This document shows, piece by piece, positions 6,915-55,162 of a stretch of DNA of 64,000 nucleotides; position 1 is the stretch's first letter, and each line of letters starts with the position of its first letter. Origin of the DNA: Leucosporidium creatinivorum (taxonomy: Eukaryota > Basidiomycota > Microbotryomycetes > Leucosporidiales > Leucosporidiaceae). Below the pieces are notes generated by a model. That model ran no database searches. It saw nothing but the letters and a program-made list of their open reading frames with translations, and was not told the origin of the DNA. A program made the position numbers and the translations under genes. Location of the stretch: positions 87,681-151,680 of the forward strand of contig BCKL01000040.1 in NCBI GenBank assembly GCA_001600635.1, in the 5' to 3' direction.

Positions 6915-6956
6915 CTCGGCGATGGCTTGTCGAGCGCCAAGGTAGAGCTGTAGGCG
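6915..6956 (+). promoter_or_regulatory. Family upstream element, copy A
   Basis: A 42-bp block whose end lies 231 bases before the ATG of member A. It follows the pattern CTCGGCGATGGC, a variable middle, then AGCTGTAGGCG. The same block precedes six other family members at 210-225 bases. The rest of 6784-7186 holds the CT-rich shared leader and no gene. Confidence 0.6.
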
Positions 6957-7186
6957 AGCTGGGCAGCCTACAGCAGCTCGTGAAGGTTCTTGTATCACTT
7001 CACTTTACTCTCGAGCTCTGCAGCACTCCATCACCCTCAACAAACCCCTCTCTTCTCTCAGCCGCTCGAACCCCTTCTCGCTCACGGCCTCCTCCGTCTG
7101 TTGTCCTCTTCCCTCATCTTGCTCGTCTCGTCTCGTCTCGCTCTCGCTCTCGTTGCTCTCAGCTCCAACAAACATACTCGTACAGG

Positions 7187-8359
7187 ATGGAAGCTCAGCA
7201 ACAACCTACAGCTCACTGCAAGCGCTCTGGTGCAGCGAGGAGGAAGCTCAAGAAGGAGAAGCAAGCGCTGCTCGACGCTCAATTCGAGGGACTCGAGATC
7301 GACCCGACCAAAGGATAGAAGCTGCCGCCAGAGCTCGTGTACCACATCATTCGCATCTCTGCTCCGGCCCCCGAGGTCCTCTACGCAAGCGATGCCGCTC
7401 GCGAGCATCGCCGCTTTCTCTCACGCCTTTCCCTCGTCTGCTCGCTCTGGAGGAGGGAAGCACAGTGCTTACTCTGGACAAGGATTACTTTACGTACAAC
7501 CCACGCCATCCAAAGCTTCCTTTCAGGTGGACACAGGGCTCAGTCAACGCAAAAGCTGGACCTGGTCAGCGCCGAAACCCCGCCCATCGACGGCCAGCTC
7601 GTTCGTCAAGTCCTGGGAGCTACGCACTCACTCAAGTGTCTCAGTATCAGCGGCGTAGTCGGCCTAGATCCTGCGGCTCTCACTGGTCCTAGTTTGGCGG
7701 GTAGGTCTTTCGCCGTCGTCCTGCTCCTCGCCGAGCATGCTCACCTAACTTGCCATGGCAGACCTCCGCCAGCTTCTGCTTTACTCCAGCATCACCTACA
7801 CTCGCCCTTCCTCCGTCAACTGGCTCCGCCCCCACTTCCGCCTCGAGGACCTGGATTGTCGGTCGCTCGCCTGGACCCAAGCCGAGTTCCCCAGCCGACT
7901 CTTGGTCGCCCTTCTTCAAGCTACGACAAGATCGGTGAACTTGGCGCTTGCGACATCTCTAAGCCTACGGCTATCCAACAAATCACCCGCTCTCCATTTC
8001 GACGCCTCGCCCCACTCACTCCAAAGGCTCACTCTCCTTCACCTCCGACCCGATTTCTACTCCTACTTCCTTCCCTTCATCGACACGCTGCATTCTCTTA
8101 CATCCCTCACGCTTGACCACACCAATCCCTTGCTCTTGCAGACCCTCCTTCTCCACTCGCCGAGCTCAACATCGCAATCTCACCGAGGGAGGATTTCGCA
8201 CTCGAGAACTTCGCCATTGGAGCTGGCTTTACCAGCCTCTCCAAATTGAAAAGGTGGTGGATTATCGGTGCAGAGGTCAGGTCTGGGGGTGCTACAAAGT
8301 TCGGCGATGAGTGCCAGAAGCGGGGAGTTAAGCTTGTGTGGGGGCAGAAGAGCGACTGA
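7187..8359 (+). pseudogene. F-box-like family member A, disrupted
   Basis: Starts with the constant family N-terminus (MEAQQQPTAH, then basic RKLKKEKQALLDAQFEGLE) but codon 44 is TAG at 7316-7318 where other copies have TGG for Trp. Past the stop the frame stays open and keeps the F-box-like segment: KLPPELVYHIIR, then LSLVCSLWRREAQCLLW. The phase-1 donor follows at 7700/7701, with exon 2 from 7762. A second lesion lies near 8150-8160: the frame shifts by one before AELNIAISP, and the correct C-terminus (GFTSLSKLKRWW, ending GVKLVWGQKSD) is read to the stop at 8357-8359. Two independent lesions make a pseudogene likely, though a downstream Met could give a shortened product. It keeps the family leader and upstream element. 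Confidence 0.8.
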
Positions 8360-8468
8360 GCAAGCAGAGGCAGCGTCCTGGAAGGAGAAGTCACCTTTGA
8401 CAAGTGTGTGCAGTCTGAAGGCCGAATGAAAGACGCTCACTCGACAGCACGCCCTCCCTCCTGCGAGG

Positions 8469-8510
8469 TTCGGCGATGGCATCTCGAGCGCTGAGCTCGA
8501 GCTTTAGGCG
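8469..8510 (+). promoter_or_regulatory. Family upstream element, copy B
   Basis: Matches the 42-bp family block with few changes (TTCGGCGATGGC at the start, GAGCTTTAGGCG at the end). It ends 210 bases before the ATG of member B, although B lacks the constant coding N-terminus. It is the main feature of the 360-base gap 8360-8719. Confidence 0.55.
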
Positions 8511-8719
8511 ACCTGGAGCGCCGAGAACACCCTGAGAAGACATTTACATTATGATCGGCTTGGCTCGATGCTCCATAAGCAACCTTGATACCCTCTCTTC
8601 CCGCCTCAGGCTGACGCTCGACCGCTTGCGCTCTCAACTTCCAGGTTTTCCTATCAGCGTTGCCCAACCTCTTCGAGCTTTCGACAAATTCGGTGGAAGA
8701 CTGCTCGTCAACTACAGCT

Positions 8720-9999
8720 ATGCCCGACATTCAGCCGCCATCGTCCTTTACCCACCAGCTCGACCACCTATCCCTCCAACCCGGCTCCGAGAGCCCACGT
8801 CTCTGCGTCGACGTCGTGCATCTGGTCCTGCAAGCTGCCTGCCCTGCTGTCAAGAAGCAGGAAAAGTACATCATTGCCGCCCAGGAGGCTTATCGACTGC
8901 TCTGCTCCACCGCCCTCGTCTGCTCGGCGTGGAGACGACCAGCGCAATCGCTTCTCTGGCGTCACGCATACTTGCAGTCGGCCGGTCGAGCCGCCGCCTT
9001 CAAGCGAGTTGTTCATCTGTATCCGACCGTCTCTATGCGCTCTGAGGACTGGCCGGAGCGGCCGGGACCGGTGATCGGGGGCTTCGAAGGGAGGCTGGTG
9101 CAGGAAGTGCTGGACTCCAGCTTAGATGGATGTTTGAGGTCGCTAGCGCTGGTGGGAGTGAGCGGCTTGGATCTCCAAGCCTTGATCGACTCGCCAAAGC
9201 TACATGGTGCGTTGGTTAATGCCCGTAACGGCCAGACGGAAGCTGACCACTTCGCCGAGCAGGGTTCAAGAGGCTGTCGCTGGATTACGAGATCGGCTAC
9301 AAACCTGCGTCACCTCTGGCAGCTAGCTATACCACACCGACATTCACCCTCGACTATCTATACCTTCGCCACCCAATGAGCCGCGCTCGATTTTCGGCGC
9401 CGATTCCTGGCCCCCAACTCGCCGCCCTTCTCTCCGCCGTCACCAATCGACTGGTGCTCTCCAGGTCGGTGTTCAGTCATCTTGACACTACAGCCTCACA
9501 TGAGCTCCCCATCTGCCCACTCCCACCCCTCCGCTCCCTGCGAGTGATTAAGGTAAAGTGGCCCTCGGCACTCGATCCTCTTGTGCCCCTCCTCGCCCGA
9601 GGCGCTTCTCTCCCCCGTCTCGAGATCCCATACCTTCCGTCAAAGCTTCTAGAGCGATATCCACTCCCTATAACGCACCTCAAGGTGTTTAACGGATACT
9701 CATCGGCGGTCTTCGACGTTGAGATCTTCATCGAGCTGCGCCGAGGCGGCGTGAAGGCTATGGACGGGCTTGAGACGGTTGAGATAACGATGAATGAAGG
9801 AGAAGACGAGAGGCGGGACTTCTTGTTGTGTGAGTTGGAGAGAGTAGGGATCGCCATGCAGGTCACTTGGCAAAAGGTAAGCCTTCGCCGAGCCCCTCCG
9901 AACATGCGCCTCGAGCTGATCGCTGGCTCTCCTTGCCAGCCTCGTCAGCTACCAAAAGGGTTAGTGCTGTATAGCTCAGATGAAGATGATGATTACTAG
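8720..9999 (+). CDS. F-box-like family member B, divergent
   Basis: Predicted 407 residues from exons 8720-9206 and 9263-9999, joined in phase 1 like the rest of the family. The N-terminus (MPDIQPPSSFTHQLDHLSLQ) is unrelated to the constant head. The following part keeps the F-box-like signature CVDVVHLVLQ, then LVCSAWRRPAQSLLW. The second half has spaced leucines (LPPLRSLRVIKVKW, SLPRLEIPYLPSKLLERYPL) suggesting irregular LRR-like repeats. The C-terminus is an acidic DEDDDY tail. The in-frame TTG further upstream is not used as start. F-box proteins usually present substrates to SCF ubiquitin ligases; that role is inferred. The gene ends 73 bases from the convergent decarboxylase. Intact by eye. 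Confidence 0.7.
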
Positions 10000-10072
10000 T
10001 GCCTTGAAAATGCCACGCCTGCTTATTACGTTCAGCTTCCTATCGCCGAACCGCCTCGTTCCGGCATCTAGC

Positions 10073-12712: not shown

Positions 12713-12929
12713 GTAGGGCGGTAGGGCGGTAGCTTGAAGCGCTGTAGCCGATTCGATTATCGAGGCAAGTCCAGGCAGGAAGGCAACCCTTCAAATTCGA
12801 CTTCTCGGCCTTTACAGCTCCAAAGCGGCCCGCTGCTCTCTCGCTCCTTCGCTCATCTCGCTGTTGCCTACGGACCTACATCGCCTCGCTCGGAAACTGT
12901 AGCCGATCAGATCCGGCTATTGTCTAGCC
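12713..12929. promoter_or_regulatory. Short bidirectional promoter region
   Basis: Only 217 bases separate the divergent start codons of the decarboxylase and the SCY1-like gene, so the two probably share promoter DNA. The decarboxylase side has a short CCCTAC repeat (12714-12731); the other side is CT-rich. No gene seen. Confidence 0.45.
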
Positions 12930-19775: not shown

Positions 19776-19817
19776 CTCGGCGACGGCAAGTTGGGCGCCG
19801 AGTTCGAGCTGTAGGCG
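19776..19817 (+). promoter_or_regulatory. Family upstream element, copy C
   Basis: A 42-bp block (CTCGGCGACGGCAAG at the start, GAGCTGTAGGCG at the end) finishing 222 bases before the ATG of member C. Between it and the ATG lies the shared CT-rich leader containing GTCTGTTGTCCTCC. Confidence 0.6.
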
Positions 19818-20038
19818 AGTCGAAGGGCCAAAGGGACCGTGAAACGATCCTGTATGGGAGTCGATCAATGTAAAGCTTTACCACACTTCATCACCTTCAA
19901 CACCTCCTCTCCTCCCTCGTCGCTCGAACCTCTTCCCGCTCGAGCCCTCTCTCGTCTGTTGTCCTCCTCCCACATCTTGCTCGTCTCGCTCTCGCTTACG
20001 CCGCTCTCAGCTACAACAAGCTCACTCGCACTACTAGG

Positions 20039-21269
20039 ATGGAAGCTCAACAACAACCTACAGCTCACGGCAAGCGCTCCGGCGCAGCGAGGAGGATGCT
20101 CAAGAAGGAAAAGCAGGCGTTGCTCGACGCTCAATTCGAGGGACTCGAGATCGACCCGACCAAAGGATGGAAGCTTCCGCCGGAGCTCGTGTACCACATC
20201 ATGGACCTTGTGGCCCCCACTCCTGAGATTAGCCTCTACAGCAACGCCGCTGGAGAGTACCGGCTCCTCCTTTGCCGATTGTCGCTAGTTTGCTCGCTCT
20301 GGAGGGAAGCCGCCCAAGGACGCCTATGGCGCAACAGTGTGCTGAAGACGGAACATGCCGCCCGGTGCTTACTCCTCGGAGGTACCAAGCTTTGCCGTCA
20401 AACGCAGGTCCTCACCGTCGAAGGCGGCAGCCTCGGCGAAGGCAGGCCTATCGCTGGCTCCATCGTCCACCAGATCATCGCGGAAACACAGGATTTGAGC
20501 TTCCTCGGTCTCAGAGGCGTTGTCGATCTCGACATGGACGCTCTCACCGGGCCAAATTTGGAGCGTGAGTATCGGCTCAATCTCGGCGAGCCTGAGCTGA
20601 CTCGCTTCTCTAGACATCAAGGATCTGTACATCAGCGAGACGGTCGAGTTCAGTCTTACAAAAACGTACGAACCGCTGAAAGCGCCGTTCACCCTGCAAA
20701 GGCTCGAGTTCACCTCCTTCTGCTGGACCGAGCCTAACTTCCCGAGCGCTCTCTTGGTCGCCCTCCTCGAAGTCACCATCTACCGCGCCTCAGTCCAGGT
20801 TATCTCGCCAGTCCTATCGGCACAGCAAACCACTGGACCGGAGTCGAATACGTTTGCGACGATCGCCNGAGCCGCCAGCCTTCCCAACCGAAGTGCACTC
20901 CCTCGTTTCTCCCCGATACCCCTTCCCATGGAATGGCTCTACTTCAACGGTGTCGAGCCTTCAACAATAAGCGCTTTCCGTCCTTTCTTTGCCCAAACCA
21001 CCTCCCTCGTTCGACTCGATTTGGACATCACGCTCCCCTTCCTTCTCCAGACGCTCCCCCACCCGCTGCAGGAGCTCCGCATCTGTGAGATCACCTTTGG
21101 CACCTTTGAAGTCGAGCTCCGCGTGCTTTGCGCCGGTCCAGTCAGCCTCTCACAGCTGCAGACCTGGTACTTTTGCTTTCCGGACCCGAAGTCGGAGGGC
21201 TCCCTCAAATTCGGGGAGGAAGCCGGGAAGAGAAGGGTCGAGGTGGTATGGGACGGAGACCTGGAGTAG
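20039..21269 (+). CDS. F-box-like family member C
   Basis: Predicted 393 residues from exons 20039-20564 and 20614-21269, phase-1 intron. Head MEAQQQPTAHGKRSGAARR, then LKKEKQALLDAQFEGLEIDP, then F-box-like WKLPPELVYHIMDL and LSLVCSLWREAAQGRLW. The second exon has LRR-like strings (LVRLDLDITLPFLLQTLPH, LQELRICEITFG) and ends VEVVWDGDLE. It is a near-identical twin of member D on the other strand (about 94% in exon 1 protein by eye, higher in exon 2). It is followed by a fragment of gene X in antisense, showing it arose by duplication from the D locus. Contains one ambiguous base at 20868. SCF-adaptor function is inferred from the F-box-like motif only. Confidence 0.75.
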
Positions 21270-31548: not shown

Positions 31549-33030
31549 GTAGTGGGTTGGCGGGTGAGCGGCGGATATGGACTTGATGTTGATAATGTTT
31601 AAGAGTCACGCCGAAATCCTTGCACTCGGTTGAGAAGAGAAAGTGGCGCGAACTCGACCGCCGAAAGTGCGCGGTCAAAAACGGGAGAGAGCGAGGCTCT
31701 CGTGGGTCTTCAGTTGGTCTGAGCGGTGTTACAATCGTAAAGAGAGGTCTCTACTCCAGGTCTCCGTCCCATACCACCTCGACCCTTCTCTTCCTGGCTT
31801 CCTCGCCGAATTTGAGGGAGCCCTCCGACTTCGGGTTCGGAAAGCAAAAGTACCAGGTCTGCAGCTGTGAGAGGCTGACTGAACCGGCGCAAAGCACGCG
31901 GAGCTCGACTTCAAAGGTGCCAAAGGTGATCTCACAGATGCGGAGCTCCTGCAGCGGGTGGGGGAGCGTCTGGAGAAGGTAGGGAAGTGTGGTGTCCAAA
32001 TCGAGTCGAACGAGGGAGGTGGTTTGGGCAAAGAAAGGACGNAAAGCGCTTATTGTTGAAGGCTCGACACCGTTGAAGTAGAGCCATTCCATGGGAAGGG
32101 GTATCGGGGAGAAACGAGGGAGTGCACTTCGGTTGGGAAGGCTGGCGGCTCNGGCGATCGTCGCAAACGTATTCGACTCCGGTCCAGTGGTTTGCTGTGC
32201 CGATAGGACTGGCGAGATAACCTGGACTGAGGCGCGGTAGATGGTGACTTCGAGGAGGGCGACCAAGAGAGCGCTCGGGAAGTTAGGCTCGGTCCAGCAG
32301 AAGGAGGTGAACTCGAGCCTTTGCAGGGTGAACGGCGCTTTCAGCGGTTCGTACGTTTTTGTAAGACTGAACTCGACCGTCTCGCTGATGTACAGATCCT
32401 TGATGTCTAGAGAAGCGAGTCAGCTCAGGCTCGCCGAGATTGAGCCGATACTCACGCTCCAAATTTGGCCCGGTGAGAGCGTCCATGTCGAGATCGACAA
32501 CGCCTCTGAGACCGAGGAAGCTCAAATCCTGTGTTTCCGCGATGATCTGGTGGACGATGGAGCCAGCGATAGGCTTGCCTTCACCGAGGCTGCCGCCTTC
32601 GACGATGAGGACCTGCGTTCGACGGCAAAGCTTAGAACCTCCGAGGAGGAAGCACCGGGCGGCGTGTTCCGTCTTCAACACACTCTTGCGCCATAGGCGT
32701 CCCTGAGCGGCCTCCCTCCAGAGCGAGCAAACGAGCGACAGTCGGCAAAGGAGGAGCCGGTACTCTCTAGCGGCGTTGCTGTAGAGGCTAATCTCAGAAG
32801 TGGGGGCCACAAGGTCCATGATGTGGCACAGGAGCTCCGGCGGCAGCTCCCATGCTTTGGTCGGGTCGATCTCGAGTCCCTCGAACTGAGCGTCGAGCAA
32901 CGCCTGCTTTTCCTTCTTGAGCTTCCTCCTCGCTGCGCCGGAGCGCTTGCCGTGAGCTGTAGGTTGTTGTTGAGCTTCCATCCTAGTAGTGCGAGTGTGC
33001 TTGTTGGGGCTGAGAGCTGCGAGAGCGAGA
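31390..33030 (-). repeat. Inverted duplication block, right arm (gene X tail plus F-box D)
   Basis: Partner of 19990-21630. Because the gene X tail here completes an intact gene, this locus is the probable donor. Distal to the ATG the leader of D resembles members A and E more than C, so the duplicated unit is mosaic. Confidence 0.75.
31751..32981 (-). CDS. F-box-like family member D
   Basis: Predicted 393 residues, exons 32456-32981 and 31751-32406, same length and phase as C. Head MEAQQQPTAHGKRSGAARRK, F-box-like WELPPELLCHIMDLVAP and LSLVCSLWREAAQGRLW, LRR-like second exon ending VEVVWDGDLE. Differences from C cluster in exon 1 (for instance GW to AW before the F-box-like motif). Two ambiguous bases, 32042 and 32152. 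Convergent with gene X. Function as a ubiquitin-ligase adaptor is inferred. Confidence 0.75.
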
Positions 33031-33199
33031 CGAGCAAGATGTGGGAGGAGGACAACGGACGGGAGAGGGCTCGAGCGAGAAGGGGTTCGAGCGGCTGGAG
33101 AGGGAGAGGAGATGTCGAGGCCGCTGAGGTGCTACAGAGCTCGAGAGCGAGCTGATTATGATATAAGAGCTTTCTCGAGCTGCTGTCGGCTGCCCAGTC

Positions 33200-33242
33200 C
33201 GCCTACAGTTCGAGCTCGGTGCTCGCCCTAGCCATCGCCGAA
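33200..33242 (-). promoter_or_regulatory. Family upstream element, copy D
   Basis: Read on the minus strand: TTCGGCGATGGCTAG at the start and GAACTGTAGGCG at the end. Its proximal edge is 219 bases upstream of the ATG of D. The middle is the most changed of all copies. Confidence 0.5.
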
Positions 33243-37000: not shown

Positions 37001-40000
37001 TACGGCGGTGCATAGCCATCTCGTCCCTTCCGCGCAGACTTGGGCGCGCAACTACCTGCAGGAGGAGGAGGAGGAGTTCGTCGGCAACATTTGCAGGATG
37101 AAGCTCGGACAGGTGCGTTCGAGCGACTGTACTAATGAGAACGCCGCTGACCTTACCTCCCGCTCGCAGAGGATCAACGTTGCTCCTTACCGCCGTCAAG
37201 ATGGCACGATGGAGAAGGGCGACATCCCTTCCGTCCTCGCCCTCTCGCACGGTCGTGGAGACCCTCAGCGCGACGACGTCACCTACTGCTTCATCGACTC
37301 GGACGGCCACTTCCGCGAGAACGGCACCATCTCCAACCTCTTCGCTCCCAGCGAGACCGAGCGGGAGCAGTTCGTCGACCTCCTCAAGCGTCGTAGGCCT
37401 CAAGTCGTCGTCATTGGAGGATTTTCGCCCGCTACCAAGCGCCTCATGGCCGACTTCCGCTCGTTCGCCCAAGGAGTGACCGACTCGATCGTCACCGAGG
37501 AGGAGGCTGATCCGCCAACAGAGGAGGAGGAGAACCTCTCGCCCGACGACCGTCATCGCCGCGCCGTCTTCGACGCTACCTACGTCTACGACGACGTCGC
37601 CAAGATCTACATGAACTCGCAGCGCGCCCAGCTCGAGTTCCCCGACCTCACCAAGATCGGCAAGTACTGCATTGGCCTCGCTCGCTACGCCCAGTCGCCC
37701 ATCAACGAGTACGCCGCCCTCGGACCCGACCTCACCGCCCTCGCCTACGATCCCAACCAGAAGTTCGTGAGTCGGTTAGGCTCTGCTTGAACGCCGCCGA
37801 GCATCCAGCTGACCTGGCTCTTCGCCGCCCAACAGCTCCCCACCCAAAAGCTCGTTCCCCATCTCGAGAAGGCTCTCATCGAGGTCGTCAACCGCCTCGG
37901 CGTCGACATCAACAAAGCCATTCGCAACGCCTACTACTACAACCTCCTTCCCTACGTCGCTGGTCTCGGTCCTCGCAAGGCCGACGGCCTCGTCAAGAAG
38001 ATCAACTCTGTCGTCGTGAGTAGATCTCCGCCTCCTGCTCGATATCTCAAGCTGACTCCCCCCTCTCGCAGAGCGGAACCCTCACGACTCGTCACGGTCT
38101 CGTCACCCACGACATCATGACCAAGAACGTCTTCATGAACGCCGCCGGATTCCTTCGCATCCCTCAAGACGACCTACGTGCCGACTTCGGTCGCCGTTCT
38201 GACGACGAGGAGCAGCCCGAGGTACTGGACGACACGAGGATCCATCCCGAGGAGTACGAAATCACGCGCAAGATGGCCGCCGATGCCATGGAGATCGACG
38301 AGGAGGAGACTTCTCGCTACAAGACCGCCTCGCAGGCCGTCATCGACCTCATGGACGTAGACGCCACCAAGTTGGACGACCTTTCGCTCGACGATTTCGC
38401 CGTCGAGTTGCAGAAGCTCCTCCACGTTCCCAAGCGTCTCGCCCTCTACGCCATTCGCGACGAGCTGCAGAGCCCCTACGCCGAGCCTCGCCCCGTCTTC
38501 CACCCGCCCTCCGCCGTCGAGGTCTTCACCATGCTCTCGGGAGAGACTCAGGCCACCCTCGACCGTGGTCTCATCATCCCCGTTCGCTACCTCAAGATGA
38601 CCCCCGATGGAGTTGTGCGCGTTCGCCTCGATTCGGGACTCGAAGGATCCGTACAGGTCGGATACCGCGCTGATGAGGATGGAGAGGGTCGTTACCGCCC
38701 TCCACCACAAGGCAGCACGCTCCAAGCCCTCGTCGTCGAGCTTCGCCACGAGACGTTCGAGGTCGAGCTCTCGACGCAGGAGTCGGCCATCTCGCACGGC
38801 GACCGCGATCGTCGTCGAACGATCCCCGACTACGCCTACTGGGATCAGAACCTCGCCGACGCCGAGAAGGAGGCGCAGGCGGCTGTTGAGCAGAAGGCGA
38901 CGGGCAGGCAGAAGCGCGTGCTCAAGCACCCCAGCTTCCAGAACGTCGACAGTGGAAAGGCCGAGGAGTTCCTCTCGCACATGCAGCGCGGTGACTGTGT
39001 CATTCGCCCTTCGTCCAAAGAGGATCATCTCGCCGTCACTTGGAAGGTCGGAGAGGGCATCTACCAGCATGTCGGTGAGTCGCAGAGATAGCCGAGACAC
39101 TTCCCAGCTCTATACTGATCTATCCTCCTCATTCACAGCCGTCCACGAGCTCAACAAGGCCAACCCGTGGTCCCTCGGCTCGACCCTTCGCATCGCCGGC
39201 GCTGGAACCAAGGAGTACACCTACAGCGATCTCGACGAGCTCATCGTATCGCACATCAAGCAGATGGCGCTCAAGGTCAACGAAATGACGGCTCACGAGA
39301 AGTTCAAGGGCTCCAAGACCGACCTCGGTGCGCTCACTCGATTCTTTCTCCTGCGCCGAGCCACTTGACTGACCCGCATTTCTTCGCACAGACACTTGGA
39401 TCAACAACGCTTCGATGGCCAACCCCGAGCGCTCTTTCTACGGCTTTGCCTTTGACCCCGACCGCAGGAAAGCTGGACAGTTCGTGCTCGGCTTCCGCGC
39501 CAATCGGGACACCCCCTCGGAACACTGGGTGCGTCGCTCGCTCCCTGGCTTCTCTTGTCACACTCACTTATGCCTCTTCTCATCTCATAGCCCATCAAGG
39601 TCGTTCCCGGCGCCTTCGTCCTCATGAACCAGGAGCACGGCAGCGTCCTCGCTCTCGTGCGTTGTACTTCTTCGCTTCAGCCCCAACTCCCCGCTGACTC
39701 TTCTTTGCAGTGCAACGCCTTCAAGCACGCCTACACCGCTCGCACGTCGAGCAACCCCGCTCGCCTGCCCGGCAAGACGCCCATGCATCTCGGAGGGCGA
39801 ACGCCGATGCCAGGAGGAGGACGAACGCCGATGCCAGGAGTCCCAGGCAGCGCGATGGGAGCTGGAGCTGCTCGTACACCGAACCCTTATCGCATGGGAG
39901 GTGCTACACCAAACCCTCAACGAGGAGGCGCTCCACCAAACCCTCGAGGAGAAGCGACGCCGAATCCGTGAGTCGGTGACGACCATGCGAGCTCGGGGAG

Positions 40001-40327
40001 CTAGAGCTGACTTTTCTCTCCACCACAGCTACCGACCACAAGGAGGCGCTACTCCGATGCACCCCGGTGGCGGAGCCGAGTACGTTCTGCCGACTTGCGC
40101 GCTCGCCTGCTTCTCGCTGACCTCGACTCCTTCACAGCCCTCGCGGTCAGCCTCCCATCTCTCAATACGGCCAAGGTGGACCTGGACAGTACGGCGCGCC
40201 AAATCAACAGCAGCAGCAGCAGCAGTGGCAGCCGCATCAGAACCAGCCGTGGGGCCAGCAGCAGCAACAGAATCAGGGAGGGCAGGGCGGCAACTACGGC
40301 CAGCAGCAATGGGGCAACGGTCGCTGA
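34065..40327 (+). CDS. SPT6: Transcription elongation factor SPT6
   Basis: Histone chaperone and elongation factor travelling with RNA polymerase II. Acidic N-terminus (MSLADLISGAPIADDSDDGD) with basic patch KKKKKRRKQR. Then the helix-rich core (EDDRIRTLDIPERMQ, FIWAHRGDFLVH) and the YqgF-like fold (VLALSHGRGDPQRDDV, VVVIGGFSPATKRLMADF). The helix-hairpin-helix is NLLPYVAGLGPRKADGL, the S1 domain GVVRVRLDSGLEGSVQVG. Tandem SH2 begins at GDCVIRPSSKEDHLAVTW and continues with NPERSFYGFAFD. The tail carries TPMP/TPNP-type repeats and Gln/Gly-rich sequence ending at 40327. Start at 34065 opens the conserved acidic N-terminus. Intron 1 (about 34272-34660) is about 390 nt, long for this window; others are about 60 nt. 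Essential in most fungi. Confidence 0.96.
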
Positions 40328-40504
40328 GCGAGGCAAGAGTAGCTTTGTAGTAGTGTGTGTGTGTAGCTTGGATCGTTCGAAAAATAGGGTCACCTGTACC
40401 TTTTCCCACTCAGTCTCGGTCGACTTTTGCGCGAAGGTTGAGATGAGAGCTCCCAATTGAGCCGGCGCGTGACTTGGCTCTCTCTGCTTCCTCCCACTCG
40501 CTCG

Positions 40505-42009
40505 ATGGCGCTCACTCGTCTCGTACCGCGGTCCGACTACTGGCAGCTCGCGCTACTACGCCTCGGCTATCCCTCCGTCATCGCCTTCCACGCTTCTCTT
40601 CCTCCAAGCTCGCCGAACCTCACTCAAGCCAACGTCGAACGAGCAGCTTCCCATCTTCTCAGAAAGTACCCGCTGCTCCGATGTGGTCTCAGTAGACCCT
40701 CAGAGTCGCGATCTTCGCTCCGCATGCGACAAGACGTTCTTCCTGCCGAGGTCGTCGAGGTGGAGATGGGAAGGAAAGAGCTCGCCAAGTCGTCGACCGA
40801 GCTACTTTCGGAGGCGCTGGAGAGGGAGGGAGGGTTCAAGTGGGAGGACGGACCACTGTGGCGGGTGAAGATGCTCAGCGGAGGAGCAGATCGAGCTTCG
40901 CCAACGAGACTACTCCTTTCCATCGCCCATCTCATCTCGGACGGCATTGGGGCTCGAAGACTCTTCGCCGAGCTCCTCAGCTTACTCAAAAACAATACCA
41001 AAACCCCGCCGAGCATCAACAGTACCTTCCCGCCGAGCCGGGAGGACACGGATCGCTTTACCCCTCCCTCGGCTTTCGTCGAACTCGGAAACGCCCTCAC
41101 CGCCGACGCTGCCTACCCCTTCCACTCCCTTCCCCCAGTCCTTCCATATTCATCTCTTCCTCCTGCCCACCCCTCTCACACCGTCGTGCAGAAGCTGGCG
41201 ACCCTCTCTCCCGCCATCATCGCCGCGCTCAAGGCTCAAGCCCTAGCGAACGGCATCCACACTCTCCAACCCCTCCTCCATGGCGCAGCTCTCGCCGCCC
41301 TTTCGATCGCCTTCACCTCCCGCTCACCAGACGAAACCTTCACCCTCAAATCCTTTACCGACGTCAACTTTCGCGACGAGCGACTCGGTCATCCGTCGGC
41401 GACAGGCTCCTACGCCTACAGCATCCCGACACATCGTTGGAGATGCTACACTCGATTCCCAATCTGGATGCTCTGTCGCTGGTACCAGCAAGAGCTGTCA
41501 GATACGTCGTTGAGGGAGGGAGCGAAGTGGGAGGCGGGGTACGATTGGGGCAAGGGCGAGGGGAACCGGTTTGTGTACCGCGTTGATCAGATGGTGGAGC
41601 GTGCGAAGAGAGATATGGAACGAGCTGGAGGCTGGTGCTGGTCGACTACGGCGGCGACTTCGAACCTTGGCGTGATGGATGAGACGGGCTGGGAGGGCGA
41701 GCTCGGCGATGTCTGCTGGGCGCAAACGGCGGTTCCAGGCTGCTCTGCGATACTGTTGAACGTGAGGCGACCGTTGGGAGTAGCTTTGGGTCATTCAGAA
41801 GCGTCCTGGAGGAGTCTGCTGACTCTCATCGCAATTCGCAGGCGCTCTCGGCGAAGGGAGGCGAACTCACCATTACCGCTGTTTGGCGTGCTGGCACCCT
41901 CGAGGCTGATCGAATGGACCAATTATATTCTCATTTCAGCTCGATACTAGCAGCTGTAGCTCGAGGTGCGGTGGGAGCAATGACTGAAATGGAAGAGCTT
42001 CGACGCTGA
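40505..42009 (+). CDS. Alcohol acyltransferase/condensation-type protein, possible frameshift
   Basis: Resembles the ATF/AATase-condensation superfamily that moves acyl groups from CoA to alcohols. N-terminus RLVPRSDYWQLALLRLGYPS, then the active-site HLISDGIG (HxxxDG), GHPSATGSYAYSIPTHR, and STTAATSNLGVMDETG. Start at 40505; a TTG start further upstream was rejected. The direct frame stops at 41950 with an unconvincing end. The +1 frame gives a family-like C-terminus: GGELTITAVWRAGTLEADR, ending at TGA 42007-42009. The switch can be explained by one missing T in the TTT at 41785-41787. A 44-nt intron 41755-41798 is the alternative, but it has a weak donor and no branch site. Whether the gene is active is open. 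Confidence 0.65.
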
Positions 42010-42119: not shown

Positions 42120-43291
42120 CTATGTTGACTGCTTGCCCCACAGCACCCTGACTCCCCTCGCCTCGCACTCGCCCACAAACACGCGAGCTGTCTCCGGCTT
42201 TGCCTCCGTCCTCTCAAACACCCACGCCACCAACTTTGATACTGAATGACAGTTAACGTGCAGGACCAACAGCTCGGAGTAAAAGCTTGGGTCGGGCTCC
42301 TCGGTGATGGTGAGTTCGATGAGTTGAGCGGGGAGGATGCCGAGGATGGCGGAGTCGGTGAAGCATAGAGTGAGGCTCAGCAGGTGATCGAGCTTTCTGA
42401 AGAATGGTAGGAACGCCTCGGTAGCCGCCATACTGCCAGAGAGGAATTCGAGAGTGGTGATGGAAAGGGCCGAGGAGGGGAGGAGAGGTAGAACTCGGTT
42501 GATACTGAAGTCGCGGGAAGGTAGAATTCGGACCGTTGCATGAGAGTCGACAGATTCTAGGAGAGTGGTGAGAAAGCGCAGAGGGATATTTGGCTCGGTC
42601 CAGGACAGCGTGACCTCGAGGATGCGGAGGCGGAATGGGACGGTAATTGGCTTCAGTGGCGCCTCGTCTCTGATCCTTGCCTTCCGGGACATGGTCAGAG
42701 TGATGAGCTCTGCAATGGGGGTCAGCAACGTCCTCTGCCTCGGCTTGAATGACAAAAGAGCTCACTCGCCATGTTCTCGCGGAGCAGCGCTCCCGCGTCC
42801 AAACTGAGGACCTTCCCAAGACTGAGATAGCGTAGATGCTGGGTTGCGTTCACAGCCTGCCTTACGAGGCTACCGTCGAGATATCGACGACGATCGCTTC
42901 CGGTCTCTCCAACGTGCAGACTTCGGGTGAAGCGAATCTTGTCTCCGCCCAACAGAAAACTCCGGATGGCTTGCGGGGTATCGAGTATGGCGCTGTTCCA
43001 CAGCAGCTTTTGCGACTCCTCCTTCCAGAGCGAGCAGACGAGCGAGGCGGTGAGGAGGGCAGTCTGAGCTTGTCGGTAGGCAGCCTCCTTGCCGCGCTGC
43101 TCCTGGGCGGAGGGTATTGAGGGATTGATGATGTGGTACATGAGCTCCGGTGGTAGCTTCCATCCTTTGGTCGGGTCAATTTCGAGTCCCTCGAAGTGAG
43201 CGTCGAGCAACGCCTGCTTTTCCCTCTTGAGCTTCCTCCTCGCTGCACCGGAGCGCTTGCCGTGAGCTGTAGGTTGTTGCTGAGCTTCCAT
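42120..43291 (-). CDS. F-box-like family member E
   Basis: Predicted 371 residues, exons 42766-43291 and 42120-42709, phase-1 intron; exon 1 is 526 nt, as in C and D. Constant head MEAQQQPTAHGKRSGAARRK with QALLDAHFEGLEIDPTKG, F-box-like WKLPPELMYHIINP, a short insert (EQRGKEAAYRQAQ), then LTASLVCSLWKEESQKLLW. The second exon is the most diverged body of the family: LRILEVTLSWTEPNIPLRFL and HLLSLTLCFTDSAILGILP, ending VRVLWGKQST. Convergent with the acyltransferase, 110 bases from its inferred stop. Intact by eye. Confidence 0.75.
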
Positions 43292-43514
43292 CCTTGTAGT
43301 GCGGGTGCTTGTTGTAGCTGAGAGCGACGAGAGCGAGATCGAGACGAGCAAGTTGTGGGAGGAGGACAACAGACGAGAGAGGGCTCGAGCGAGGAAAAGG
43401 GCTCGAGCGGTTGAGGGAGGAGAGGGGGTGTTGGGAGTGGGAAAGTGCTACAGAGCTCGAAGTGATCTGGGTGTGATACGAAAACTTTCTCGAGCTGCTG
43501 TCGGCTCCCCAGTC

Positions 43515-43556
43515 CGCCAACAGCTCGAGCTCGGCGCTCGACCTCCCATCGCCGAG
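43515..43556 (-). promoter_or_regulatory. Family upstream element, copy E
   Basis: On the minus strand CTCGGCGATGGGAGG, then TCGAGCGCCGAGCTCGAG, then CTGTTGGCG, ending 224 bases before the ATG of E. The rest of 43292-43767 is the shared CT-rich leader plus unremarkable sequence. Confidence 0.6.
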
Positions 43557-47060: not shown

Positions 47061-47103
47061 GAGACTCTACTACAGTTTTCGACTCAGCGCCGAGCTTGAG
47101 CTG

Positions 47104-47345: not shown

Positions 47346-47408
47346 GTAGCCGTGCTCACCTCATTCGTCTGGCGAGACTGCATCCTGGCTACAGCTCTCT
47401 GGCCCAAG

Positions 47409-47650
47409 CCGAGCTTCACAGCCGTCGCCACGCTAGCTGTAGGTCGATGAGGACGTATATTCATGGCCCAAATTCGCGAATTGTGTAGAGTATAGTGAGC
47501 TTTATCAGCTCAGCTACACGAAGAGCTCACTACCGCTCGCTCTGACGTTCCAGCCCCCATTTTGCTGCTCGGCGAAGAGTCCGCGAGCAGCGGAAGGGTC
47601 TGCGGGGCCCCTTCTTGCTACGAAGTAGCTGAAGCATAGACTCCAAGTGT
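47409..47650. repeat. Diverged tandem duplication, unit 2
   Basis: Second unit: GTCGATGAGG, CCCAAATTCGCG, AGAGCTCACT, CTGCTCGGC, GAGCAGCGGA, GGGCCCCTTC. Lies in the 1.5-kb gene-poor gap 47061-48564. The remainder of that gap is rich in AGCTGTAG words around 48130-48420 and has an open stretch near 47949-48075 (MQVTTLRNAVASCSATS) that I do not accept as a gene. Confidence 0.5.
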
Positions 47651-50203: not shown

Positions 50204-50316
50204 AGATCGGAGGTGTAGCTCATTTTGACGAAGTAGTAAAATCATCCCCGCCCATCATTTGACGGTACCGAGCCTGCTCTTCGCTGCGAGAGAGGCGCGA
50301 CGTGGAGTGGGATGGC

Positions 50317-50358
50317 CTCGGCGATGGCAAGTCGAGCGCCGAGCTCGAGCTGTAGGCG
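50317..50358 (+). promoter_or_regulatory. Family upstream element, copy F
   Basis: CTCGGCGATGGCAAG, then TCGAGCGCCGAGCTCGAG, then CTGTAGGCG: the apparent consensus form. Ends 225 bases before the ATG of F. The gap 50204-50582 otherwise holds the shared leader. Confidence 0.65.
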
Positions 50359-50582
50359 AGTCGTAGAGCTGAAGCGAGCCGAGAATGAGCTTCGAATGCT
50401 CACAATACGGCAGAAAGCTCTACCACCCGTCGTCATCCTCGACACCCCCTCTCCTCCCTCGACCGCTCGAACCCCTTCTCGCTCGAGCCCTCTCCCGTCT
50501 GTTGTCCTCCTCCACATCTTGCTCATCTCGCTCTCGCTTTTCGTCGCTCTCAGTTCCAACAAGCACTCGCTTACTACAAAGG

Positions 50583-51792
50583 ATGGAAGCTCAGCAACAA
50601 CCTACAGCTCACGGCAAGCGCTCCGGTGCAGCGAGGAGGAAGCTCAAGAAGGAGAAGCAGGCGATGCTCGACGCTCAATTCGAGGGACTCGAAATCGACC
50701 CGACCAAAGGATGGAAGCTGCCGCCGGAGCTCGTCTACTACATCATGCACATCTCCGCACCTCCACCCGGCACCCTCTACACCAGCGACGCCGTTCGCGA
50801 GCATCGACGTTTCCTTTGCCGACTCTCACTCGTCTGCACGGCGTGGAAAGACGAGGCCCAGAGCCTGCTTTGGAACAGCGCGGTGCTCAAGACCAACCAA
50901 CACGTCCAAAGCTTCCTGCTGGGGGGGCCAAAGCTGCGCCTCACGAAGTCCCTTGACATCGACGGGCCAGAGAGGGCAAAGGACGCCCAGCAGAACGACG
51001 ACCGCATTGACGGCGCCTTGGTCGACCAAGTCCTAGCGAAGACCGACTCTCTGTGCACGATGTCTTTAGCGGGAGTCGACAAGTTGGCCATGGAGACGCT
51101 GTCTAAGCAGACGCTGAAAGGTGAGCTCGGCGCTCCTCGTTATGGTCACGCGAGCGTCGCGCTGACCGTTTCGAGCAGGACTCTTGACGCTCGACATCGC
51201 TTGTGACGTCGACTTCATCACCTCGCTTCGACACCGCCCTTTGAGCGTACCCTACTGCCTTCACACCCTCCTCTTCTCCTCCGTCTGCTGGACCGAGCGC
51301 CGCTTCCCCAGCGCTCTCCTCGTCTCCCTCCTCGAATGCACCGTCACGGCTACGAATCTCACGATTATCCCGTCGCGTCACGACTACAGCCCTCGAGATC
51401 TCAATCGCACTGCTTCGCTTCGCTTCACTTCCTCCCGGTCCAGCCTTCGCAAACTTGTTCTTGGGCATCTCTATCCTTCCGCCCACGCCGCCCTCCTCCC
51501 TTATCTTAAGACACTCCACAGTCTTCGAGCGTTGGCCCTCGACTGGGCGACCCCCTCGATCCTCGAGGCTCTTCCGTCTCCCCTCGACGACCTCGTCCTT
51601 CCCTACTTGCCGAAGCACAATTTCGGTCACGAGCTCTCCGCTCTGCGTGCCGGCTACACGTCGCTCTCCAAGCTGAAACGGCTCATATTCACGGGGGACG
51701 TTGAGCGAGTAAGGCCTAGCCGAGACTTGGTGCGGGAGTGCAAGGCCAGGGGGATTACCATCGGTTGGCAGAGTGGGCGCGTGACGCTGTAG
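50583..51792 (+). CDS. F-box-like family member F
   Basis: Predicted 383 residues, exons 50583-51120 and 51179-51792, phase 1. Constant head, then WKLPPELVYYIMHISAP and LSLVCTAWKDEAQSLLW. The second exon has clear repeated leucine patterns: LRKLVLGHLYPSAHAALLP, LKTLHSLRALALDWATPS and ILEALPSPLDDLVLPYLP, ending KARGITIGWQSGRVTL. Closest to member G (about 60% in the body by eye), 380 bases downstream in the same orientation, so F and G are a tandem pair. Intact. Confidence 0.78.
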
Positions 51793-51908
51793 GGAAACAG
51801 GACGAGAAGACTGCCATAGGATGTACAGTGCGCTGCATCGAGACTGCTTTTGCACAGATGTTTATGAGCGTAGGGAAGGTGCGAAGCCTCGGTGTCGGCG
51901 AAGGGACA

Positions 51909-51950
51909 CTCGGCGATGGCAAGTCGGGCGCCGAGCTCGAGCTGTAGGCG
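51909..51950 (+). promoter_or_regulatory. Family upstream element, copy G
   Basis: Identical to the F element except one base (GGGCGCC for GAGCGCC) and ends 221 bases before the ATG of G. The DNA between element and leader differs completely from F. Confidence 0.65.
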
Positions 51951-52170
51951 GAATGGGGAGCCGAGAGCACTCTGAACAGTATCATCGGCCAAACCTGATT
52001 AGCTGTAGAGGTCTACAGCACTTCATCACCCTCAACACCCCCTCTCCTCCCTCAACCGCTCGAACCCTTTCCTCGCTCGGGCCCTCTCCCGTCTGTTGTC
52101 CTCCTCCCACAACTTACTCGTCTCGCTTCTCGTCGCTCTCAGCTCCAACAAGCACTCGCGTACTACTAGG

Positions 52171-53400
52171 ATGGAAGCACAGCAACAACCTACAGCTCAC
52201 GGCAAGCGCTCCGGTGCAGCGAGGAGGAAGCTCAAGAAGGAGAAGCAGGCGTTGCTCGACGCTCAGTTCGAGGGACTCGAAATCGACCCGACGAAAGGAT
52301 GGAAGCTGCCGCCGGAGCTCGTGTACCATATGATACGCATCTCGACTCCTCCTCACGGCACCCCCTTCCATAGCGACGCGGCTCGCGAGCATCGACGCTT
52401 CCTTTCCCGACTCTCCCTCGTTTGCTCGTCATGGCGAGCAGAGGCGCAAAACTTGCTATGGATCAGTGTAGTCCTTAAATCGGACCGGCACGCTCAAAGC
52501 TTCCTGTCGGGAGGTTCAAAAGCGCGCCTCACCAAGGTTCTCGACATCGCCGGATCCAACGAGGCGGAAGGCCAGAAGAACGGGCGCATCAACGGCGCGT
52601 TAGTCGACCAAGTCATGGCAAAGACCCGATCTCTGATCGTGGTGTCGCTGGCGGGTATAGATAAGCTGGCGATGGAGACGCTGACGAGGCCTGCGCTGAA
52701 AGGTGAGCTCGGCGGGCCACGATTACCGCAGTTGAGCAGGGAGCTGACACCTCCAGTAGGGCTCGCTAAGCTCGAAATCATACACAACGTTGACTTCGAC
52801 GCTTCTCAACGAGACCGCCCTCTCAGCCTCCCCTTCCGCCTGCATACCCTACTTTTCGCCTCGACTTGCTGGAGCGAGAAGCGATTCCCCAGCCGTCTCC
52901 TTGTTTCCCTCCTCGAGTGCACCACCACGGCTGTGGACCTCCGACTGGTTTCCTCGCGCCACGGCGGCAACCGCCGGGTGGCAATGCGCGCCGCACCCCT
53001 TCGCTTCAACTCCTCGCCGTCCGGACTGCGCTCACTGTCGCTACGCTATGTCGACACTTCCGCCCATGCCGCCTTGCTTCCGTTCTTGAAGACCCTTCGC
53101 AATCTACGAACACTCGGCCTCGACTGGGCGACTCCTTCCATCCTCCAAGCCCTTCCTTTCCCCCTGGACGACCTCGTCGTCTGCTACTCGACCAAGCACA
53201 AGTTCGCCGGCGAGCTTGTTGCGCTTCGGGCCGGCTACAGGTCACTCTCGGAATTGAAGCAGCTGGTCTATGTCGGGGGTGGAGACGAGCCAGAGGTCGA
53301 CCGTGGCTTCGAGGACGAATGTCAGGCCAGGGGGATTCGAATCATCTGGCAAGGGGTGGAGGTGGTTGCTGCGAGACTGAGTCGGGAGGAAGATGCTTGA
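52171..53400 (+). CDS. F-box-like family member G
   Basis: Predicted 391 residues, exons 52171-52702 and 52757-53400. The 54-nt intron has no stop and is a multiple of three, so unspliced transcript would still be translatable. It is called an intron because of its donor, GCTGAC branch site, acceptor and match to the family position. Constant head, WKLPPELVYHMIRISTP, LSLVCSSWRAEAQNLLW, then a body close to F: LRSLSLRYVDTSAHAALLP, LKTLRNLRTLGLDWATPS, ILQALPFPLDDLVV. The C-terminus is longer than F (VEVVAARLSREEDA). Intact. Confidence 0.78.
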   Translation: MEAQQQPTAHGKRSGAARRKLKKEKQALLDAQFEGLEIDPTKGWKLPPELVYHMIRISTPPHGTPFHSDAAREHRRFLSRLSLVCSSWRAEAQNLLWISVVLKSDRHAQSFLSGGSKARLTKVLDIAGSNEAEGQKNGRINGALVDQVMAKTRSLIVVSLAGIDKLAMETLTRPALKGELGGPRLPQLSRELTPPVGLAKLEIIHNVDFDASQRDRPLSLPFRLHTLLFASTCWSEKRFPSRLLVSLLECTTTAVDLRLVSSRHGGNRRVAMRAAPLRFNSSPSGLRSLSLRYVDTSAHAALLPFLKTLRNLRTLGLDWATPSILQALPFPLDDLVVCYSTKHKFAGELVALRAGYRSLSELKQLVYVGGGDEPEVDRGFEDECQARGIRIIWQGVEVVAARLSREEDA

Positions 53401-53733
53401 GTCAGTTTACCGTGTCTGAAAGCTACAATATGCGGCCACTAATGATATGTGCAGTGAGAGAGCAGTGAGAGAGCTGCGAAGCCTGAGCGAAGGATTCGGC
53501 GGACGGGTGCTTCCAACGGATAGCTGCTTTGATGTAAGAAGGAGCATGCAGACTCCTCGAGCTGTCTGGAAATACTCGGCGAGAGCTCAGTACATCTCCG
53601 AGCCATCTGTGCCAGCTCTCTGGCTACCCGAGGACCGACCTCTGCTTCGACCTCTCAATTGGACTTCTTCTTCTCCTTCTCCAAATCGCTCGAGCTTCGA
53701 GTCGCTTCACTTCTCGTCATCCCCAGCGCCAAA

Positions 53734-55162
53734 ATGCCGATTCGCAAGGCCAAGAAAGGATCGGGCTATCGTGGAACAGGCGGCCGAGGTGCCCAGGCGA
53801 CTTCTCGCCTCGAAAGCGAGATGAAGCAGCTCTCCATCTCCTCGTCCACGAATTGCCCGCCTCTTCCCTCGGACGTCGTCTACCTCATCCTCCGACACGG
53901 TGCACCAGTCAAAGACGGCCCCTACGAGCTCACCTACGAAGCGAGGCAGCGCCTGGCCTTCCTCTGACGCGCCTCTCTCGTCAACTCGGTTTGGAGGCAG
54001 GAAGCTCAGACGCTCTTGTGGGAGCATGTGGTGCTGTGTTCAGATAAGCAGATGGATAGCTTCCTTCTCAGCGTCGACAACGACCGACATACCAGCACGC
54101 TTCGCCTCGGCGCCGAGCAGCCCTCCTCGCTTAGGCTTCTCGACGGTCGTCTCGCACAAGAGGTCCTCGCTGGATGTCGTGGAGTGGAATCGGTGGAGCT
54201 TCGCTGTATTGTCAAGCTTCCCGTCAACAGCTTCTTGCCGGCCTCTTTGGAAGGTGAGCGACGGGCTTTCTTGCGCCGAGCCTGAGCTGACTGAACTTGC
54301 TGTCGGCCCAGATCTGAAGTCGCTCACGATCCACGACAGCGTCGAGCTCGCCCCCAGATCTCAGTCGGATAGCGCAGCTCTCGATGTCCCTTTCACCCTC
54401 ACCCACCTCCTCTACGTCTTATCTCGAAGCTGGACCAATATGTCGTTCTTCCTGCTCGGCGCCCTCTTGCACTCTGTGGACGGCCAAGCTTCGATCTCCC
54501 TTCAGATGTACAACAAGCTCTCCAAATCGAATAGCATCCCCTGCCGCGAGCTCGACCACGGTCTCACTCACCTCACGCTCAGATCCTTTGACCAAAGTCA
54601 CATCGCCTCTCTCCTACCCTTCCTTCGCCGTTGTCCTCGACTCGAGACGCTTGAGGTCGACACGCACCCCACCTTCCTTTTCGAAGCCATCTCGCATCCT
54701 CTGTCGACCCTCAAGATCCTCGAGCCCGTCAATCTCAACTTTGGCTCGGTCGTCGAGCTGCTCAAGCAGGGATTCCACTCGCTCTCGAAGCTCAAGCGTT
54801 TGGCGGTCGAGTCTGAGACGAGTACTGCTGCTGTTCGCTCGAGTACGCTGCAGACTCTGTGCACGAAGCAGGACGTGATGTTGGACGTGACCGTACTCGA
54901 CGTGAACCGCTTCTTCGCACCTCGAGTCATCGCCGAGCAGCGCCGGGACAGCTTGCTAATCTACCTACGGATCTTTCGATGGCTCTTTCATAGCCTCCAC
55001 CTCCCAGAGACCGCTTCGGCTACTACCGCTACCACTCGGATGGGGACGACTACTAGTGATGAGGTACAAGTAGGGGAGCGCCGAAGTCGGTTCGAATCGT
55101 TTGAAGACGGCGGGCAGAGCAGAAGCTTGACTTTTGTAGCTTGGAGTACTCGTGACAGATAG
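53734..55162 (+). pseudogene. F-box-like family member H, one in-frame TGA
   Basis: Exons 53734-54253 and 54312-55162, phase 1, 456 residues if the stop is ignored. The head differs from the constant one (MPIRKAKKGSGYRGTGGRG). F-box-like part: PPLPSDVVYLILRHGAP, then a TGA at 53965-53967 inside the second half of the motif, then RASLVNSVWRQEAQTLLW. The rest is undamaged: LRSFDQSHIASLLPFLRRC, RLETLEVDTHPTFLFEAI, and a long Thr-rich C-terminus. TGA probably replaced CGA (Arg). With a single lesion this could be a young pseudogene, a sequencing or strain polymorphism, or a readthrough gene. It lacks the upstream element. Confidence 0.7.

What the first reader, a model, noticed from the sequence alone, without database searches (positions are those of the whole stretch)
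6915..55162. F-box-like family with a constant 5' cassette and variable bodies
Seen directly: six members (A, C, D, E, F, G) start with almost the same 43 codons, alike even at synonymous positions, and share a CT-rich leader. Their second exons diverge to a small fraction of identity (C/D and F/G pairs excepted). B and H share the phase-1 intron and F-box-like motif but have other heads. Identity that drops from 5' to 3', including silent sites, suggests repeated 5' gene conversion or DNA-level constraint on the head with diversification of the LRR-like body. A constant SCF-docking half with changing substrate-binding halves would resemble a recognition repertoire near a chromosome end. Function is inference.
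Basis: partly seen in the sequence, partly recalled or inferred. Interest (0 to 1): 0.82.

Follow-up and report, generated by a model that had tools for sequence, protein, structure and literature searches.

The report
Shared promoter-and-start, divergent F-box genes
In a Leucosporidium-like yeast, a large family of genes that look like protein-degradation adaptors seems to keep evening out its promoters and first ~45 codons while the recognition part of each gene has drifted far apart, so that control DNA is better preserved than the gene it controls.

Summary
Six genes (A, C, D, E, F, G) share leader and head; all eight share a phase-1 intron. The genome (nearest named hits Leucosporidium creatinivorum) has at least 35 genes with this head, on five contigs. 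Among 19 of them (C40, C35, C14_715), four-fold silent sites match 84% in codons 1-43, 43% in the F-box, 32-35% beyond (saturation 31%). The cassette runs about -280 to +170 and ends inside the F-box, so the constant part is promoter plus N-terminus, not the SCF-docking half. Recombination explains it better than constraint alone: head and body trees conflict (5 of 8 AU tests), and sisters C/D have 98-100% identical 3' bodies but different leaders. On C14 six divergent pairs share a 760-769 bp promoter between diverged bodies. Samples of three other F-box families show upstream DNA better conserved than coding DNA; one control pair does not. AlphaFold gives an LRR-like fold; one Skp1 locus exists; SCF function is untested. 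Exon 2 dN/dS is 0.27-0.35 in five pairs, so positive selection is not shown. Telomere repeats end the window, but the pattern also occurs deep inside other contigs.

The parts
6915..7186 (+). leader of A (upstream element 6915-6975, CT-rich leader from 7045)
   Evidence: repeat families D2 and D4; alignment
7187..8249 (+). member A: exon 1 7187-7700, intron 7701-7761, exon 2 from 7762; in-frame TAG at codon 44; frame closes at 8249; probably a pseudogene
8469..8529 (+). diverged copy of the upstream leader element in front of B
   Evidence: D2 copy, 69% to reference
8720..9999 (+). member B: other head; exon 1 8720-9206, phase-1 intron 9207-9262, exon 2 9263-9999
   Evidence: F-box-like E=4.7e-4, below Pfam cut-off
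19776..20038 (+). leader of C, closest to the leader of F (0.85)
20039..21269 (+). member C: exon 1 of 526 nt from 20039, 49-nt phase-1 intron, exon 2 to 21269
   Evidence: model; end of frame
31751..32981 (-). member D, inverted near-copy of C in the body: exon 1 of 526 nt from 32981, 49-nt phase-1 intron, exon 2 to 31751
32982..33230 (-). leader of D, closest to the leader of E (0.835), not C
42120..43291 (-). member E: exon 1 43291-42766, intron 42765-42710, exon 2 42709-42120
43292..43556 (-). leader of E
50317..50582 (+). leader of F (upstream element 50317-50377, CT-rich leader 50446-50513, CGTCTGTTGTCCTC motif)
50583..51792 (+). member F: exon 1 50583-51120, intron 51121-51178, exon 2 51179-51792, 383 aa
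51909..52170 (+). leader of G
52171..53400 (+). member G: exon 1 52171-52702, intron 52703-52759, exon 2 52760-53400, 390 aa; structure predicted from the unspliced open frame
53734..55162 (+). member H: other head, phase-1 intron 54254-54311, in-frame TGA in exon 1
63960..64000 (+). telomere-like repeat at the end of the contig

Best explanation
These are F-box/leucine-rich-repeat genes, probably substrate adaptors of an SCF ubiquitin ligase, in an expanded family of a Leucosporidium-like yeast. Old paralogs with diverged bodies are repeatedly overwritten at their 5' ends by ectopic recombination (gene conversion, or exchange within the shared head and leader). Tracts centre on promoter, leader and the first 40-55 codons. 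This evens out promoter and N-terminal head and re-pairs bodies with other 5' ends, while F-box and LRR body evolve apart. The likely cause is that recombination starts in open promoter chromatin and tracts fade into the gene, with selection removing tracts that would overwrite a distinct body. Shown by sequence analysis: silent-site contrast, tract limits, tree conflict, mosaics. Inferred: promoter-started breaks, Skp1 binding, substrate recognition by the LRR, the basic head helix as a targeting signal.
For: 4D identity 0.841 head, 0.428 F-box, 0.324 and 0.354 beyond, saturation 0.309. Conserved tract about -280 to +170. Head silent divergence (0.161) about equals noncoding leader divergence (0.170). 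Body data reject the head clade of eight C40 genes (pAU 6.6e-45), p4+75 (1.1e-6) and C35_128+58 (1.7e-5); head data reject the body clade of ten genes (0.0031) and five C35 genes (0.048). C35_68 has a C35-type leader at 21 of 23 informative sites (0 C40-type) but 12 C40-type against 5 C35-type sites after the ATG; C40_75 has a local-type leader at 24 of 31 sites (2 C1-type) while its body groups with the C1 genes in the protein tree. C/D are 0.98-1.00 alike from +430 on, but 0.62-0.69 at -300..-130, and each leader is closest to a different neighbour's. F/p5 dS runs 0.165, 0.80, 0.53, 0.255 along the gene; mosaic run reached in 0 of 10000 permutations. C14: six divergent pairs, ATG-ATG 760-769 bp, intergenic bins 0.70-0.92; in one comparison about 1.2 kb (one gene's first 700 nt and ~500 nt of promoter) is 0.97-1.00 identical, then 0.75-0.84 and 0.63-0.74. 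Other F-box families. LRR-like fold; one Skp1 locus.
Against: Three of eight AU tests did not reject: C40_75 with the C1 pair in the head (0.072), F+p5 as head sisters (0.276), the two C14 MAD bodies (0.292). The C40 head clade has only 87/94 support in the careful tree. After +129, C40_75 matches C1 at 36 and the local type at 29 informative sites, and local 6:2 at 129-170, so its body placement rests on the protein tree, with a dubious gene model. Head silent distance follows body distance (r 0.33, p 0.0006) and not physical distance (r 0.10, p 0.06); only the -280..-130 leader clearly follows distance (r 0.27). p5's nearest leader is still F's (0.756), so F/p5 is not a clean swap; C/D could also be one copying event that began near -50. 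Silent identity rises again to 0.48 at codons 76-90. Some leader conservation looks functional. GC at 4D sites is lower in the head (0.516 against 0.65-0.67), no sign of GC-biased conversion. Control pair L072/L075 shows the pattern weakly or not. Of the 35 head genes only C and D pass the PF12937 cut-off (150 of 330 candidates scored).
Confidence: 0.75

Rival explanations
1. DNA- or RNA-level constraint: promoter, 5' UTR and the first codons carry regulatory elements under strong purifying selection, so they stay alike without recombination while bodies age.
For: Family-associated leader motif: of 18 distinct sites, 14 precede head genes, 1 a broken head gene, 1 a headless leader, 2 lie elsewhere. 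A leader-like stretch is read into an L. creatinivorum protein (protein level only). The tract is patchy, with a dip at -210..-150. Head silent distance tracks body distance.
Against: Sisters C/D and F/p5 differ more in the leader than in exon 2. Leader type follows location while body type does not in C35_68 and C40_75. Trees conflict in 5 of 8 tests. Two MEA head groups differ at silent sites (0.598 between, 0.841 and 0.805 within).
Confidence: 0.17
2. Recent duplication plus body-specific acceleration: genes are young and the body mutates unusually fast (targeted hypermutation) or is under strong diversifying selection, with a border near +170.
For: The 3' border lies at about the same place in four gene groups.
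Against: Exon 2 dN/dS is 0.27-0.35 in five of six pairs; silent as well as replacement sites are near saturation; C/D bodies stay 98-100% identical while leaders differ; one non-F-box duplicate in the region shows no fall along its gene.
Confidence: 0.05
3. Mobile cassette: a transposable promoter-head unit inserted upstream of many bodies.
For: One leader without head or body at C40:70966-71185; the upstream element also occurs at C35:57744, near an H-like gene, and at C22:30997.
Against: Other F-box families show the pattern with other leaders. Head, F-box and body occur together in L. creatinivorum proteins. The lone leader abuts a duplicated segment. Terminal repeats or target-site duplications were not searched for.
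Confidence: 0.03

Closest known systems
Protocadherin variable-exon clusters (Noonan et al., as told in Ohta's review PMC3966226, section 7 read)
   Same: One segment of each tandem paralog is homogenised by gene conversion while the recognition segment stays diverse.
   Different: There it is an ectodomain of variable exons; here it is promoter, leader and N-terminus of separate genes, including a shared divergent promoter.
C. elegans F-box paralogs fog-2 and ftr-1 (same section of the review)
   Same: F-box genes with patchwork divergence ascribed to interlocus conversion.
   Different: Two genes; the review tells of no promoter-centred cassette across dozens of genes.
Promoter-start recombination hotspots and 5' polarity in yeast (PMC6215864 and PMC13186367, passages seen)
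   Same: Breaks near transcription starts give exchange that is highest at the 5' end; hotspots of this kind are told for fungi and plants.
   Different: Allelic meiotic recombination; here the signal is between paralogs over evolutionary time, and initiation was not measured.
FBXL proteins (SKP2, FBXL2)
   Different: Identity 12-15%; a 43-residue head precedes the F-box; non-F-box LRR proteins score as high.
Caenorhabditis F-box A2 genes with a transposase HTH (PMC12062965, abstract and outline seen)
   Same: Multicopy F-box genes with an added conserved domain.
   Different: Pfam scans of F and G gave only a weak F-box-like hit.

Membership tests
F-box proteins (PF12937/PF00646) | F-box motif over the curated cut-off | tested here: inconclusive
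   C and D exceed the PF12937 cut-off (34.7 and 38.4 bits), the only 2 of the 35 head genes listed (150 of 330 candidates scored); F, G and B fall below it; the H fragment gave no hit. Relatives P0002 and P0004 carry PF12937 in the database.
F-box proteins (PF12937/PF00646) | Binding to Skp1 and assembly into an SCF ligase | not testable with these tools
   Only a Skp1 locus was found (two neighbouring matches on C30).
FBXL (F-box plus LRR) | LRR solenoid C-terminal to the F-box | tested here: met
Concerted evolution by interlocus gene conversion | Silent similarity higher within a neighbourhood group than between groups | tested here: met
   0.841 and 0.805 within, 0.598 between the MEA groups. 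Two limits: the two C1 genes match the C40/C35 set as well as its members match each other (0.856), and head silent sites do not follow distance within C35/C40.
Concerted evolution by interlocus gene conversion | Tree conflict between converted and unconverted segments | tested here: met
   5 of 8 AU tests under 0.05, one of them at 0.048.
Concerted evolution by interlocus gene conversion | Shared polymorphism between loci within one species | not testable with these tools
   One genome only; no relatives are held for G000 (note).
Positively selected recognition repertoire | dN/dS above 1 in the recognition part | tested here: not met
   Exon 2 dN/dS: F/p5 0.089/0.255, F/G 0.341/1.008, p5/G 0.313/1.017, C1 pair 0.433/1.567, C35_176/129 0.554/2.051, C/D 0.010/0.019; dS above 1 is rough. 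Site-wise tests were not run.

The most novel reading that the evidence does not exclude
The shared promoter-head works as a recombination port: across many F-box/LRR families of this fungus, ectopic exchange in the promoter and first codons keeps a hundred or more substrate-recognition bodies under a few interchangeable control cassettes. It would be a standing shuffling system for a degradation repertoire, in which regulatory DNA evolves more slowly than the coding sequence it drives.
Probability: 0.2. Interest if true: 0.85.

Novelty: new variant of a known kind. Interest (0 to 1): 0.58.

Why it matters
Promoters are usually expected to diverge faster than coding sequence (recalled, general knowledge). 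Here, in samples of five F-box clusters of one genome (C35/C40, C14, C8, C22, C26), upstream DNA is more alike than the coding bodies at the nucleotide level; silent sites were measured in the first two and in one C8 pair. It gives a natural test of whether promoter-started recombination leaves a 5' homogenisation footprint on gene families, and of how diverged recognition domains survive conversion. It also warns that trees built on the conserved N-terminus of such families would mislead.

Tried and rejected
Tried without result: a PDB sequence search with G gave no relative (best E 0.048). Two protein searches found 7 and 6 proteins: five named L. creatinivorum and two unnamed ones (P0003, P0007) in all (about 8000 candidates sharing most words were scored, so absence elsewhere is not proved). 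Literature: the listings show no title or abstract on this family, and PMC10662464, the one paper holding both F-box and Leucosporidium, does not treat it in the passages seen; some searches looked for the mechanism. This is not proof that nothing is in print.

Considered and rejected: codon-usage bias as the cause of silent identity (MAD-type heads have the same core protein and 0.291 silent identity to the C40/C35 set); GC-biased conversion (GC at 4D sites lower in the head); simple subtelomeric homogenisation (sampled clusters on C14, C8, C22 and C26 lie inside contigs). Whether the head is a transposase-like domain was not tested beyond Pfam.

Gene models: the automatic intron finder placed a phase-1 donor at 505-568 nt in 20 of 35 genes; the rest (among them A, E, C40_75, C35_109, C1_474, C1_449) got dubious or unlike donors, and the acceptors of F and G were 3 nt off. 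A and E were re-read by hand. Trees, silent counts and dS used the models. Four C14 genes had exon 1 only and C14_149p is a near-copy, so these five were left out of the trees. Close pairs C/D, F/p5, F/G and p5/G were left out of the pooled silent counts of the C40/C35 set. On checking I lowered the main confidence from 0.78 to 0.75 because of the C40_75 site counts, and set the F-box cut-off row to inconclusive.
Full report
WHAT IS THERE. The window is the last 64 kb of contig C40 (87681-151680 of 151680) of a 27.7 Mb genome in 63 contigs; the window is 56-62% GC. Its right edge is telomere-like repeat, TTAGGG mixed with TTGGG; a 22-nt word of it gives 15 matches on 11 contigs, at the visible end of six of them. 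Homology points to a Leucosporidium-like fungus: of 7 proteins found with G as query, 5 are named Leucosporidium creatinivorum, the best at 46% identity. Six genes (A, C, D, E, F, G) have the same leader and head; B and H have other heads. All eight have a phase-1 intron of 49-61 nt. A and H carry in-frame stops. Other genes lie between, for example SPT6 at about 34.6-39.1 kb.

THE FAMILY IS LARGER. A DNA search with the F leader and head gave 40 matches on C40, C35, C14 and C1. A protein search with exon 1 of F gave 66 matches, adding C16, C3 and weaker ones. The last 19 kb of C35 and the start of C40 appear to be one stretch (5115 of 5115 compared bases identical), so the two contigs probably form one region of about 375 kb. 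Of 41 hits read, two are overlap duplicates; of the 39 distinct ones, 35 have the head core, one is a broken head gene (C40:40572), and three are B, H and an H-like gene. The other matches were not read. The head core TAHGKRSGAARRKLKKE recurs, with at most a few changes, in 6 of the 7 relatives aligned (P0004 lacks it), so it is older than the species split and constrained as protein.

SILENT-SITE CONTRAST. For 19 genes (C40, C35 and C14_715; 167 pairs, four close pairs left out), 4D third-base identity at same-amino-acid sites is 0.841 (2309/2744) in codons 1-43, 0.428 in the F-box, 0.324 in the rest of exon 1 and 0.354 in exon 2; saturation from codon use is 0.309. Bodies are therefore old, heads are not. 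The fall lies at codons 44-52 (0.51) and 53-75 (0.34), with a rise to 0.48 at codons 76-90. The nucleotide profile shows conservation from about -280 to +170 with a dip near -200, then the roughly 0.65 that this aligner gives along the bodies. Head silent divergence, 0.161, about equals noncoding leader divergence, 0.170. The conserved piece thus ends inside exon 1 and inside the F-box; most of the F-box goes with the variable part.

RECOMBINATION OR CONSTRAINT. Four lines favour recombination. (1) Trees: in the body tree C40_75 sits with the two C1 genes and C35_68 and C14_715 with C40 genes (SH-aLRT 99), while in the head-plus-leader tree C40_75 sits with seven other C40 genes (99 in the quick tree, 87/94 in the careful one) and C35_68 outside them. 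AU tests: body data reject the C40 head clade (6.6e-45), p4+75 (1.1e-6) and C35_128+58 (1.7e-5); head data reject the body clade of ten (0.0031) and the five C35 genes (0.048); three tests were not significant (0.072, 0.276, 0.292). Most groups were taken from the other data set's tree. (2) Informative sites: C35_68 has 21 C35-type and no C40-type leader sites among 23, then 12 C40-type and 5 C35-type sites after the ATG. C40_75 has 24 local and 2 C1-type leader sites among 31; after +129 it has 36 C1-type and 29 local ones, only a lean. (3) Young sisters: C and D are 0.98-1.00 alike from +430 on, 0.89-0.93 at -130..-1, but 0.62-0.69 at -300..-130; C's leader is closest to F's, D's to E's. The copied stretch starts at about -50, so this may be one body copied behind another gene's 5' end. 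F and p5 are 0.83-0.94 alike over +600..+1280 but 0.57 at -200..-130, with dS 0.165, 0.80, 0.53, 0.255 along the gene and a mosaic run not matched in 10000 permutations; p5's nearest leader is still F's (0.756). Constraint alone should not make the constrained part the most different one. (4) Contig C14: six divergent pairs, each with one MEA-type and one MAD-type head, ATG to ATG 760, 767, 764, 764, 767 and 769 bp; intergenic identity 0.70-0.92 in 16 bins, falling to 0.63-0.72 some 150-300 nt into both genes. In one comparison about 1.2 kb (700 nt of the MEA gene and some 500 nt of promoter) is 0.97-1.00 identical; then identity is 0.75-0.84 and further on 0.63-0.74. Against: head silent distance tracks body distance and not location, and only the far leader clearly tracks location; the leader motif is family-associated and a leader-like stretch is seen in L. 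creatinivorum; GC at 4D sites is lower in heads. I expect both processes, with recombination doing most of the homogenising.

CONTROLS. Other F-box clusters were sampled by small fetches, 11 genes chosen from the hit list. C8 pair L073/L074: leader bins 0.82-0.98, head 0.81-0.95, later bins 0.53-0.75; C8 pair L072/L075: upstream 0.65-0.81, gene 0.55-0.75, weak or absent. C22, three genes, zero set at the F-box match: upstream bins 0.69-0.97, coding 0.51-0.82 with most at 0.5-0.7. C26, four genes: upstream 0.62-0.97, coding 0.52-0.82; in two of its six pairs only the first 120 nt of the coding part aligned. In the frame printed the upstream DNA has stops. One non-F-box duplicate in the same region (a condensation-domain gene, window 39900-41767 against C40:69046-70919) has 0.78-0.98 throughout, without a 5'-to-3' fall. 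This is no genome-wide scan.

COMPARISON. The process is of a known kind: partial concerted evolution in which conversion homogenises one part while another stays diverse, as told for protocadherins and RH genes, and F-box patchworks are told for fog-2/ftr-1 (PMC3966226, section 7 read). Recombination starting near transcription starts with 5' polarity is told for yeast (PMC6215864, PMC13186367, passages). What looks unusual is a promoter-centred footprint over dozens of F-box/LRR genes, including a near-fixed-length divergent promoter flanked by two variable genes.

Noticed in passing
C14 of G000, pairs at about 140, 148, 182, 240, 257 and 406 kb (L033-L038, L058, L059, L065-L068): Six divergent F-box gene pairs with 760-769 bp between ATGs; in all six one partner is MEA-type, the other MAD-type; the shared promoter is conserved and both bodies diverged.
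   Followed up: partly
L072-L082 (C8, C26, C22): Other F-box families sampled there also have upstream DNA more alike than the coding sequence, except the pair L072/L075.
   Followed up: partly
window 39900-41767 and C40:69046-70919 (L083, L069): Segmental duplication of a stretch with a condensation-domain gene; the copy abuts a lone F-box leader (C40:70966-71185) without head or body.
   Followed up: partly
window 63960-64000: Telomere-like repeat mixing TTAGGG and TTGGG; a word of it lies at the visible end of six contigs.
   Followed up: partly
C35 end (from about 222970) and C40 start: Identical in all 5115 bases compared; the two contigs probably join.
   Followed up: partly
P0002 (L. 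creatinivorum): The annotated protein starts upstream of the head and reads a leader-like stretch (PSVCCPPPH), hinting that the leader is older than the species split and that the start is misannotated.
   Followed up: no
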